From Myxococcus guangdongensis (GTDB lineage Bacteria; Myxococcota; Myxococcia; Myxococcales; Myxococcaceae), in the NCBI RefSeq assembly GCF_024198255.1, contig NZ_JAJVKW010000003.1, positions 496,001 through 560,000 of the forward strand: a DNA stretch of 64,000 bases. Direction: 5' to 3'. The notes below the pieces were generated by a model. It was not told where the DNA came from. It was given only the letters and a program-made list of their open reading frames with translations, and made no database searches. This document shows positions 41,246 to 43,747 of the stretch, piece after piece. A program made the position numbers and the translations under genes. How positions within the stretch are numbered: the stretch's first letter is position 1; every line of letters begins with the position of its first letter.

Positions 41246-41307
41246 CGCGCGGGTGACGGGTCGCGGGGAGATTGAGAACGCGCCCTGTTTGTGGCTATGG
41301 AGCGCGC

Positions 41308-42351
41308 ATGCCCATGCCCCAAGCAGGTGACGCGGCTCCCGACTTCCAGCTGCAGGACCAGGACGGCAACACCGTGACGCTCTCGCGGTTCGCGGGGAAG
41401 AACGTCGTCCTCTATTTCTATCCGAAGGATGACACTCCCGGATGCACCGTGGAGGCGTGCAGCTTCCGCGACGAGCATTCGACGCTGGAGGCCGCCGGCG
41501 CGGTGGTGCTCGGCGTGTCCGCGGACAACACCGCGAGCCACCGGAAGTTCGCGACCAAGTTCAGCCTGCCCTTCCCGCTGCTCGCGGACACCGAGCACCA
41601 GATGTCGGAGGCGTACGGCGTCTGGGGCGAGAAGTCGCTGTACGGGCGCAAGTTCCTGGGCATCACCCGCGCGACGTTCCTCATCGGGCCGGATGGCAAG
41701 GTGAAGCAGGTGTGGCCGAAGGTGAAGGTGACCGGGCACGTGGTGGAGGTGCTCGCTGCGCTGGGCGCGAAGCCCACGAGTCTTCCCTCGGGGGAGTTAC
41801 CGGCGCCGGGCTCGAGCCCGGAGGTGGAGTCGAGCGCGGGTGATGAGGACACGCGCGAGGCTCCGGTCGCGAGCGCCCCGGTGTCCGCTCCGGCGCGAGT
41901 GCCGGTGACGCGGTTCGATGCGCCGAAGCGCAAGGTCGCGCGTCAGGGTGACGCGGGGACGGGCGCCACGGCACAGGTGGAGGCTCCCGAGGCTCGCCCG
42001 GCGAAGGCCGCGCCCGTGAAGGCGGCTGCGCCTGAGGCGAAGGCCGCGCCCGCGAAGAAGGGCGCCGCGAAGAAGGGCGCCGCGAAGAAGGCTCCCGCGA
42101 AGAAGGCTGCTCCGAAGGGCGCTGTGAAGAAGACTTCCGCGAAGAAGGCCGCGCCCGCGAAGAGCGTCGCGACGAAGGCTTCCGCGAAGAAGGCTGCTCC
42201 GAAGGGCGCTGTGAAGAAGACTTCCGCGAAGAAGGCCGCGCCCGCGAAGAGCGTCGCGACGAAGGCTTCCGCGAAGAAGGCGACTCCGGCGAAGAAGGGT
42301 GCAGCGAAGAAGGCCGCGCCGTCCAAGAAGAAGGGCGCCTCCCGAAAGTAG
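41308..42351 (+). CDS. PrxQ/BCP peroxiredoxin with histone-H1-like Lys/Ala tail
   Basis: 347 aa. Residues 1-155 are a thioredoxin-fold peroxiredoxin with the peroxidatic Cys in [12 protein letters not shown] (a second Cys five residues later, as in PrxQ) and [10 protein letters not shown] Pro/Ser-rich linker (155-215) leads to a strongly basic tail (about 230-347) of AKKA/PAKK units like bacterial histone-H1 homologues. The tail contains an exact-length 29-residue tandem duplication (87-bp units). Ordinary PrxQ proteins end near 155-160. The fusion suggests peroxide defence tethered to DNA. Directly downstream is an array derived from the end of this gene. Confidence 0.88.
42106..42279 (+). 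repeat. In-frame 87-bp tandem duplication inside the basic tail
   Basis: Two adjacent copies (42106-42192, 42193-42279), each encoding 29 residues starting [18 protein letters not shown]. They are near-identical, implying recent duplication or gene conversion. Confidence 0.9.
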
Positions 42352-42776
42352 GGCGTAGCGAAGAATGCAGCGCCCTCCAAGTGGAGGGTGCCTTCCGGAA
42401 GTAGGGCGTGGCGAAGAAGGCCGCGCCCTCCAAGTGGAGGGTGCCTCCCGGAAGTAGGGCGTAGCGAAGAATGCAGCGCCCTCCAAGTGGAGGGTGCCTT
42501 CCGGAAGTAGGGCGTAGCGAAGAGGGCCGCGCCCTCCAAGTGGAGGGTGCCTCCCGGAAGTAGGGCGTAGCGAAGAATGCAGCGCCCTCCAAGTGGAGGG
42601 TGCCTCCCGGAGGTAGGGCGTAGCGAAGAGGGCCGCGCCCTCCAAGTGGAGGGTGCCTCCCGGAAGTAGGGCGTAGCGAAGAATGCAGCGCCCTCCAAGT
42701 GGAGGGTGCCTCCCGGAGGTAGGGCGCTGCGAAGAAGGCCGCGCCCTCCAAGAAGAAGGGCGCCTCTCGGAAGTAG
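42352..42776 (+). repeat. Array of eight 53-bp units derived from the peroxiredoxin gene's 3' end, seven with perfect hairpins
   Basis: Copies of CCCTCC start at 42373, 42426, 42479, 42532, 42585, 42638, 42691 and 42744, a constant 53-bp spacing. The first seven carry CCCTCCAAGTGGAGGG, a perfect 6-bp stem with AAGT loop, absent from the gene itself. Units alternate between GAATGCAGCG and GAAGGCCGCG/GAGGGCCGCG variants, giving a 106-bp higher-order period. Each includes AAGTAGGGC, i.e. the gene's own stop. The eighth copy (42726-42776) still encodes [16 protein letters not shown]-stop, identical to the real C-terminus but in another frame. Confidence 0.92.
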
Positions 42777-43261
42777 GGCGCTGCGAAGTAGGCGCCTCGC
42801 GGAAGCGAGCGTGCCTCTCGAAGATGGGCGAGAGGTCGCGGCGCATCGTCAGACAGGCACTCGGGATGACTCCCGAGTGCCGTGTCGACATCCGGGGCAC
42901 GACCCGCGTCGACGTTTCACCGGAGCGACGGTTTCACTTCGTGAACACGACGGAGTCGGCGCCGAAGCCTTGAATCCTCACAGGGCTCAGGCTCCTTTCG
43001 CGGGAGGGTTCGCGCAAATCCTGCGCGGTCGGAGCCTGCTCCCCGCAACCCTTTCGCGCGAGTCGAAGCAGCCTTCTGCCAGGAAGAAGCCTGGGTCGTC
43101 ATGCGGACAGCCCAGCACGACGAAGTCCTGAAGAGGACTGTTCGCACGCGCACGCGAGGGTTTAATTGAGCAGGCGGCCGAGGGCCGCCATGTACCCATT
43201 CGATGGGTCGGCACCGTCGAGTGCCCACCTTCGTCGAACGGGAACCTCAAAGGGAGTGGAC
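42777..43261. other. Non-coding region rich in inverted repeats after the 53-bp array
   Basis: No supported gene. It contains further hairpins: CTCGC-GGAA-GCGAG (42796-42809), CCTCTCG - 8 nt - CGAGAGG (42814-42835), the strong hairpin at 42856-42881, and an outer inverted repeat CAGGCTCC ... GGAGCCTG (42988-43038) enclosing a GCGC-rich interior that may fold. The last ~100 nt should hold the promoter of the lipoprotein gene at 43262. Confidence 0.5.
42856..42881 (+). terminator. Strong 11-bp hairpin downstream of the repeat array
   Basis: GGCACTCGGGA - TGAC - TCCCGAGTGCC, perfect 11-bp stem with a 4-nt loop, about 500 nt after the peroxiredoxin stop. Likely transcript end or 3'-end stabiliser; no T-tract follows. 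Confidence 0.6.
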
Positions 43262-43747
43262 ATGCGCGAGCTGAATCTTCGACGGTGGACCCAGGTGGCG
43301 GCGCTGACGATGGGCGCGCTGTGGAGCGTTGGCTGTGGCGGGCTTCCCGAGACGGGCGGCAAGCAGCCGGACGAGCCTCGCGGGGGTGCGTTCGCCCAGC
43401 GTGGCATCCAGCCGAGCGCCCTGCTCGACATGGAAGGCAACGTGCACCCCGAGCAGTCTCCGCCGTGGCTGATGACCGCGGACCGCGGCCACAACGGCAC
43501 CATCAAGGAGATTGGCTCCAGCATCGACCCTCGCACGCCGAAGCTGGAGGGCCACCAGAACAAGTCCCTCTGGGATGACTCGGGCAAGATGATGCAGGAC
43601 CGCTACGGCAGCGCCACCTACTCCCCCACGGCCCAGGGCCTGGGCGGCGAGGATGGCGCGATGGTGGGGACCTTCACGGACCACCACCGTTCCTGGGGCT
43701 ACCGCCCGCTCGGCTGGCAGGACCGCAACGCCCACTCGCGCCGCTAG
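43262..43747 (+). CDS. Small lipoprotein, family not recognised
   Basis: 161 aa, AGGGAG before the ATG, signal ending WSVGC. The mature part is polar, with Asn/His/Trp-rich stretches (TADRGHNGTIKEIG, GHQNKSLWDDSG, DHHRSWGYRPLGWQDRN) and no repeats or Cys pairs. It is followed by a hairpin and a second small lipoprotein. Function unknown. Confidence 0.75.
   Translation: MRELNLRRWTQVAALTMGALWSVGCGGLPETGGKQPDEPRGGAFAQRGIQPSALLDMEGNVHPEQSPPWLMTADRGHNGTIKEIGSSIDPRTPKLEGHQNKSLWDDSGKMMQDRYGSATYSPTAQGLGGEDGAMVGTFTDHHRSWGYRPLGWQDRNAHSRR

What the first reader, a model, noticed from the sequence alone, without database searches (positions are those of the whole stretch)
42352..42776. Gene tail recycled into a 53-bp hairpin repeat array
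Eight 53-bp units follow the peroxiredoxin-H1 stop. They derive from its final 54 bp, and a one-base loss plus substitutions created a perfect CCCTCC-AAGT-GGAGGG hairpin in seven of them. The hairpin is conserved while flanks vary in a 106-bp dimer rhythm, and the last unit still encodes the original C-terminus. This looks like a new structured 3'-UTR or RNA/DNA element born from coding DNA, for example mRNA stabiliser, multi-step terminator or protein-binding array.
Basis: seen in the sequence. Interest (0 to 1): 0.8.

Follow-up and report, generated by a model that had tools for sequence, protein, structure and literature searches.

The report
Hairpin minisatellite behind a peroxiredoxin gene
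In a soil bacterium of the myxobacteria, the last codons of a peroxiredoxin gene were duplicated just past its stop codon and then multiplied into a row of hairpin-forming repeats; two related species carry different hairpin repeats at the same spot, so the site looks prone to this, but no function has been shown.

Summary
The array is real and exactly placed: 42352-42776 holds seven 53-bp units plus one 54-bp unit, derived from the gene's last 54 bp. Seven carry CCCTCC-AAGT-GGAGGG in an A/B 106-bp rhythm. Unit 8 encodes the same 17 residues as the true C-terminus (five differences, all synonymous). 'Conserved hairpin' is weak evidence: only 6 of 53 columns vary, none in the core, p = 0.10. 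One founder plus dimer amplification explains it. The hairpin was tightened rather than invented: unit 8 can already form a 7-bp stem. The change fits one template switch plus one transition. The closest relative lacks the array; its post-stop sequence aligns with what follows unit 8. New here is recurrence: 3 of 27 congeners have tandem arrays directly behind this gene, needing three changes on the tree. In one (60 bp, 12.7 copies) hairpin arms largely change together. None of 20 orthologs sampled from other genera has one. Best reading: a lineage-specific minisatellite in the 3'UTR, born by duplication and slippage at hairpin-forming DNA, perhaps acting as extra terminator or exonuclease-blocking hairpins. 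Transcription, function and exact copy number are untested.

The parts
41308..42351 (+). Peroxiredoxin (AhpC/TSA family) gene with a lysine/alanine-rich, H1-like C-terminal tail; stop TAG 42349-42351
   Evidence: Pfam PF00578, E = 2.8e-42; ORF; start motif found in all 27 orthologs examined
42298..42351 (+). Last 54 bp of the gene ([17 protein letters not shown]-stop), the source copy of the repeat
   Evidence: 49 of 54 bases equal to unit 8, same protein
42352..42722 (+). Units 1-7, 53 bp each, alternating A and B types, each ending in TAG
42370..42391 (+). First hairpin GCGCCCTCC-AAGT-GGAGGGTGC (9 pairs, one G-T); repeats every 53 bp, seven in all, last at 42688-42709
42723..42776 (+). Unit 8, 54 bp, still encodes the C-terminus; can form a 7-bp stem GCGCCCT/AGGGCGC but lacks GGAGGG
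42777..42826 (+). Degenerate flank that aligns with the post-stop sequence of the closest relative; carries a different hairpin in the same layout (AGGCGC.CTCGC-GGAA-GCGAG.GTGCCT)
42856..42881 (+). Terminator-like hairpin GGCACTCGGGA-TGAC-TCCCGAGTGCC without a T run, shared with the closest relative apart from one C/T difference; 504 nt from the stop here, 86 nt there
   Evidence: fold z -5.9 for 42850-42890; alignment and distances

Best explanation
A recent, species-specific minisatellite in the 3' untranslated region of a peroxiredoxin gene. Shown: the last 54 bp with the stop codon exist in two copies, the gene tail and unit 8; between them lie seven 53-bp derivatives built as an A/B dimer series; the closest relative has neither the duplicate nor the array. 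Inferred: a founder copy lost one base and gained substitutions that tightened an existing stem, most simply by one template switch during replication (copying TCCA back as TGGA) plus a C-to-T change; slippage or unequal recombination, helped by hairpin-forming DNA, then amplified the dimer. Inferred: the array is transcribed as 3'UTR, and its G+C-rich hairpins act with the conserved downstream hairpin as a redundant cluster that stops RNA polymerase and/or blocks 3' exonucleases. Selection on the copy number itself is not required.
For: Exact 53-bp spacing and derivation. In its own genome the array DNA matches only itself and the gene's own tail at E <= 0.001 (3 matches); a two-unit query also gives one weak 34-bp match on another contig. 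The 16-mer occurs 7 times in G000, all in the array. Post-unit-8 sequence aligns with the post-stop sequence of G005. The derived segment, minus one C-to-T, is among the 6,639 products of a single template switch that were enumerated; of 4,455 combinations of 2 substitutions and 1 deletion in the right arm, 88 (2%) give as long a Watson-Crick stem (9 pairs). Arrays of 3 or more copies at the same site in 3 of 27 congeners, needing 3 changes on the tree. In G018 and two relatives, 96% of 99 cells paired against 23-66% for slid controls, with 3 pairs changed on both sides. In 800 kb of this genome perfect stems of 8 bp or more lie in 11.8% of 153 gene 3' flanks against 0.7% of shuffles, 4.6% of 218 5' flanks and 1.3% of 535 gene interiors; 1 of 18 has a T-rich tail. 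Hairpin clusters without a U tract are reported as terminators in PMC8355165 (abstract, passages and section 13 seen). Template switching as a source of hairpins is reported in PMC8794818 (abstract and section 5 seen).
Against: In a fold of the whole array the drawn hairpin has a probability of only 0.004 to 0.51 per unit; an upstream stem AGGGCG/CGCCCU and pairing between units compete. No terminator-like site with a T run lies in the array. The hairpin's invariance is not significant. Template-switch support is modest: the exact present sequence is not a single-switch product, and by the laxer mark of a 6-pair Watson-Crick stem, which is what the present units have, 1,152 of 4,455 random combinations (26%) succeed. 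The right arm could owe its GTGCC to the flanking hairpin, though that is the poorer match (19 of 26 against 22 of 27 positions for unit 8). Tail and unit 8 differ at 5 of 54 positions, more than the roughly 1.7% between the peroxiredoxin cores of G000 and G005 (branch lengths), so the first duplication may predate that split or the tail evolves fast. Two of the five covariation measures for G018 do not exceed shuffles (204 and 470 of 500 shuffles as high). No transcript data.
Confidence: 0.6

Rival explanations
1. Selected function: repeated hairpins behind this peroxiredoxin are favoured because they set mRNA level (termination or 3'-end protection), and copy number is a tuning knob that has evolved three times.
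For: 3 of 27 species with arrays of 3 or more copies at the same site, against 2 other non-CRISPR-like intergenic arrays of at least 3 copies near 1,044 crudely called genes in 1.6 Mb; arm-compensating changes in the G018 array, some with G-U intermediates.
Against: 24 of 27 congeners and 20 of 20 sampled orthologs of other genera do without. No covariation in the window array. Of five covariation measures for G018 and relatives three exceed all 500 shuffles and two do not. The G016 array folds only modestly better than shuffles, z -2.2, 3 of 100 shuffles as good. Template switching can produce compensated arms without selection (PMC8794818, abstract).
Confidence: 0.25
2. Neutral minisatellite with no function: hairpin-prone G+C-rich DNA behind a repeat-rich lysine/alanine tail slips often, and the arrays are passing products.
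For: Species-specific, homogeneous, dimer-amplified units; absent from the closest relative; coding tail itself full of repeats with periods of 15-87 bp; hairpin invariance not significant.
Against: Slippage alone does not predict compensating arm changes in G018, though template switching could. 26 of 27 orthologs have a stem of 6 pairs or more (G-T allowed) within 130 nt of the stop, but no matched control was run for that scan.
Confidence: 0.35
3. A REP/BIME-like dispersed palindromic element.
For: Palindromic units behind a gene; each unit even carries GTAG before a GGGCG/CGCCC stem, like GTAG-tagged REPs (PMC3733652, passages seen).
Against: No further copy of the unit was found in its genome; the GTAG is the lysine-stop junction; no Y1 transposase (PF01797) in the genome at E <= 0.001, while the control found it in 5 of 14 known genomes.
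Confidence: 0.02
4. Protein-binding DNA array or cruciform site rather than an RNA element.
For: Near-perfect inverted repeat at regular 53-bp spacing, about five helical turns (spacing).
Against: The exact 16-mer occurs nowhere else in the own genome, unlike a binding motif of a general factor; the G018 arms tolerate G-U pairs, which fits RNA better than DNA.
Confidence: 0.05
5. Assembly error: copy number collapsed or expanded.
For: 53-contig draft; array longer than typical short reads (recalled).
Against: Units carry distinguishing variants at 6 columns; the array lies inside a 990-kb contig; comparable arrays occur in single-contig genomes G016 and G018.
Confidence: 0.08

Closest known systems
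Bacterial intergenic minisatellites / VNTRs (for example MIRU loci of mycobacteria; search listing only)
   Same: Head-to-tail units of some tens of bp between genes, lineage-specific, few variants per unit
   Different: Single locus, unit derived from the codons and stop of the gene next to it, with a perfect hairpin in seven units; variability among strains untested
Hairpin-cluster intrinsic terminators (PMC8355165; abstract, passages and section 13 seen)
   Same: Several G+C-rich hairpins soon after a stop codon, no U tract
   Different: Here the cluster is a tandem array of one hairpin; that paper reports occurrence falling exponentially with cluster size; termination not tested here
REP/BIME arrays (PMC3733652, passages seen; PMC2817692, search listing only)
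   Same: Repeated palindromes behind genes, two unit types in alternation
   Different: Not dispersed, one orientation, no Y1 transposase found in the genome
Template-switch-born hairpins (PMC8794818; abstract and section 5 seen)
   Same: Clustered changes that lengthen a stem in one event
   Different: Described there for microRNA and rRNA genes; here a bacterial coding tail that was then amplified in tandem

Membership tests
Bacterial minisatellite / VNTR | Tandem units of roughly 10-100 bp, three or more copies | tested here: met
   53 bp x 9.5, 89% matches
Bacterial minisatellite / VNTR | Copy number differs between strains of a species | not testable with these tools
   One genome per species held; the closest other species has no array
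Hairpin-cluster terminator | Stable hairpins less than 15 nt apart, mostly within 80 nt of the stop (PMC8355165) | tested here: inconclusive
   First hairpin begins 18 nt after the stop (42370), but successive 22-nt hairpins lie 31 nt apart; intervening sequence can pair too
Hairpin-cluster terminator | Transcript ends at the cluster | not testable with these tools
   No RNA data
Classical intrinsic terminator | G+C-rich stem followed by a T run | tested here: not met
   In 42200-43300 the only such site, 43141-43158, lies far behind the array; shuffle mean 1.4
REP/BIME | Dispersed in many copies through the genome | tested here: not met
   Exact hairpin only in this array; array DNA matches only itself and the gene's own tail
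REP/BIME | Associated tyrosine transposase (Y1) in the genome | tested here: not met
   0 matches at E <= 0.001; control rings in 5 of 14 genomes
CRISPR array | Identical repeats separated by unrelated spacers | tested here: not met
   Whole 53-bp units repeat; no unique spacers
Known RNA family (Rfam 15) | Match above a family's gathering score | tested here: not met
   41900-43400: two sub-threshold matches, E 0.65 and 0.74

The most novel reading that the evidence does not exclude
The 3' flank of this peroxiredoxin gene is a hotspot where hairpin arrays arise again and again: a hairpin, latent in the last codons or just behind the stop, is perfected by template switching, multiplied by slippage and kept as a tunable multi-hairpin 3' end of a stress gene. 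This would be a route from coding DNA to a structured RNA element, with parallel hairpin arrays arising three times at one site within one genus.
Probability: 0.2. Interest if true: 0.7.

Novelty: new member of a known kind. Interest (0 to 1): 0.38.

Why it matters
It is a clear snapshot of non-coding structure made from coding DNA: source copy, a copy that still reads as protein, and amplified hairpin copies lie side by side. If the parallel arrays in three species tune the peroxiredoxin transcript, they offer a natural series for testing whether hairpin number behind a gene sets termination or mRNA half-life in a high-G+C bacterium whose long 3' hairpins, in the 800 kb sampled, mostly lack U tracts.

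Tried and rejected
Protein-coding reading of the array: units carry TAG, 53 is not a multiple of 3, and the long minus-strand ORFs are expected in G+C-rich DNA opposite a gene; rejected. Known RNA family: none above threshold. REP/BIME: rejected. Hairpin elsewhere in the genus: the 16-mer occurs once each in G008 and G011, in what reads as the same coding gene (DPSKWRG), so coincidence. Array DNA in the wider family: 74 of 96 genomes, the own one included, match at E <= 0.01. Outside G000 the best is E = 4.5e-8, in the G005 ortholog; the other listed matches are short (about 20-75 bp) and the list was cut. I take them to be lysine/alanine-rich coding sequence but did not check each. Selection test inside the array: not significant; the post hoc 22-nt version gives p = 0.03 and is not relied on. 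Recurrence, by hand: with about 2 such arrays per 1,044 called genes, two or more among 26 other species has a chance of about 0.001, or about 0.03 if long gaps are five times richer. The gene caller is crude (it missed the peroxiredoxin itself) and the test is post hoc. Covariation alignment: left out were four G018 units identical to included ones, the two degenerate last G018 units (both still fold into hairpins), and G007 (longer loop); an earlier alignment with the degenerate units was not used for counts. Named relatives: the genome scan kept 80 of 594 confirmed stretches, mostly distant peroxiredoxins, so species names are not available; 'Myxococcus-like' is my inference. Literature: nine searches showed, in the rows listed, no report of this array or of Myxococcus 3' hairpin arrays. 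Only (3 papers; 6 each) were listed in full; the others show the top 6-12 rows. Only the open-licence library was searched.

Full report
What is there. The window lies in an 11.2-Mb, 53-contig genome that I take to be a Myxococcus-like myxobacterium; the genus name is an inference. At 41308-42351 is a peroxiredoxin gene (AhpC/TSA) with a long lysine/alanine-rich tail. Directly behind its stop lie seven 53-bp units and one 54-bp unit, 42352-42776.

Anatomy. Units 1-7 share GCGCCCTCC-AAGT-GGAGGGTGC, nine pairs with one G-T. They alternate between type A (GAAGAATGCAGC) and type B (GAAGARGGCCGC), with four further variable columns, one within A and three within B. The simplest history is one founder, one doubling into A+B, and amplification of the dimer. 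Unit 8 is the old form: it reads [17 protein letters not shown]-stop exactly like the gene tail, with five differences, all synonymous. Using G005 as outgroup, three of the five changes fall in the gene tail and two in unit 8 (read). Unit 8 can already fold GCGCCCT against AGGGCGC, though in another register a different stem is its best fold. The seven copies therefore carry a tightened version of a stem latent in the codons.

Where it sits. The sequence after unit 8 aligns with the sequence after the stop in G005, the closest congener, which has no array. A perfect 11-bp hairpin at 42856-42881, shared with G005 apart from one C/T difference, is 86 nt from the stop there and 504 nt here. The array therefore lengthens what is most likely the 3' untranslated region.

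How the hairpin arose. Against unit 8 the founder shows three substitutions and one deletion within ten bases. All but one transition are produced by a single template switch that copies TCCA back as TGGA; the exact present sequence, with the transition, is not a single-switch product. Random combinations of two substitutions and a deletion in the same arm reach the nine-pair stem in 88 of 4,455 cases (2%), but a six-pair Watson-Crick stem, which is what remains after the transition, in 1,152 (26%). This is modest support. The mechanism is known from other genes (PMC8794818; abstract and section 5 seen). An alternative is that the right arm took GTGCC from the flank at 42777-42826, which has its own hairpin in the same layout, but unit 8 is the better match.

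Is the hairpin under selection here? Six of 53 columns vary among the seven units; none lies in the 16-nt core (p = 0.10), and the longest invariant run is unremarkable (p = 0.22). No base pair of the stem varies among the seven, so the array cannot show covariation. In the full array the drawn hairpin competes with AGGGCG/CGCCCU in the same unit and with pairing between units. The region as a whole folds far better than shuffles (z -8.8), as any row of hairpins would.

Recurrence. All 27 genomes of the genus that were searched have the gene. Three have tandem arrays of three or more copies directly behind the stop: the window species, G018 (60 bp, 12.7 copies, +42 to +798) and G016 (58 bp, 3.8 copies, +61 to +272). 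At E <= 0.001 the G018 unit is found only at its own locus. The labels need three changes on a tree of the gene core, and bootstraps agree; three changes could also be one gain and two losses, but the window array has a different unit. The G018 and G016 arrays grow from a hairpin that G016, G007, G019 and G018 share behind the stop, so their separate expansion is inferred from their different units. In an alignment of seven distinct G018 hairpins and one each from G016 and G019, 96% of 99 cells pair, three pairs change on both sides, and slid controls pair in 23-66%. Cells paired, cells changed on both sides and the covariation score exceed all 500 shuffles; the number of pairs changed on both sides (204 of 500 shuffles as high) and of pair types (470 of 500) do not. 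Four of the 99 cells are unpaired. Units and species left out are listed under Tried and rejected. The G018 array folds better than 20 of 20 shuffles (z -5.3); the G016 array is only modestly structured (z -2.2). In 20 orthologs from other genera no array of three or more copies was seen within 900 nt.

Background. In 800 kb of the own genome 9 of 80 tandem arrays are intergenic. Four of these have three or more copies and a period of at least 25; one of them is CRISPR-like and one is the array in question. In 400 kb each of G018 and G016, away from the locus, none of 2 and none of 3 intergenic arrays qualifies. Recurrence at one site is thus unlikely to be coincidence, but the sample is small, the gene calling crude and the test post hoc.

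Likely working. In the 800 kb sampled, long perfect stems are enriched behind genes (11.8% of 153 flanks with 8 bp or more, 0.7% in shuffles), and only 1 of 18 is followed by a T-rich stretch. Hairpin clusters without U tracts have been reported as terminators across bacteria (PMC8355165; abstract, passages and section 13 seen). I therefore infer that the array, if transcribed, adds hairpins that stop polymerase or shield the 3' end. A neutral minisatellite is nearly as likely. Neither transcription nor termination was tested.

Verdict. The claim of a conserved new hairpin element is only partly supported. The parallel arrays in sister species are the part worth following.

Noticed in passing
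L012 2510-3271 (G018) and L009 1150-1475, minus strand (G016): Different tandem hairpin arrays at the orthologous site behind the peroxiredoxin gene; the G018 units show arm-compensating changes.
   Followed up: yes
L010, about 49-133 nt after the stop (G007): A degenerate 30-bp repeat (2.8 copies, 67% matches) at the same site, below the usual threshold: a possible decayed fourth array.
   Followed up: partly
L120 13280-13460 (G000:C3 133280-133460): Another gene with a lysine/alanine-rich tail is followed by an 11-bp terminator-like hairpin (by eye) and a 42-bp, 3.2-copy array containing GCACGGA-CGCA-TCCGTGC.
   Followed up: partly
L120 3417-3684 (G000:C3 123417-123684): Intergenic array of about 34/67-bp G+C-rich units between divergent gene calls.
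   Followed up: no
G000:C3 160-2383 (L114): CRISPR-like array at the contig end (unit holds GTGGGTTGAAAC; 15.8 copies, period 142 in TRF); label not tested.
   Followed up: no
window 43060-43262: Block upstream of the next gene strongly conserved with G005, including TTTAATTGAGC and the hairpin GGCGGCCGAGGGCCGCC; perhaps its promoter and leader.
   Followed up: no
L034 (BNCN01000012.1): Record titled Comamonas sp. KCTC 72670 encodes this myxobacterial peroxiredoxin (84% identity) and its contig has the same length as G013:C12 (336,135), so the organism name looks wrong.
   Followed up: partly
window 41272-41308: ORF listing starts the peroxiredoxin at TTG 41272, but the start shared by orthologs is ATG 41308.
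   Followed up: yes
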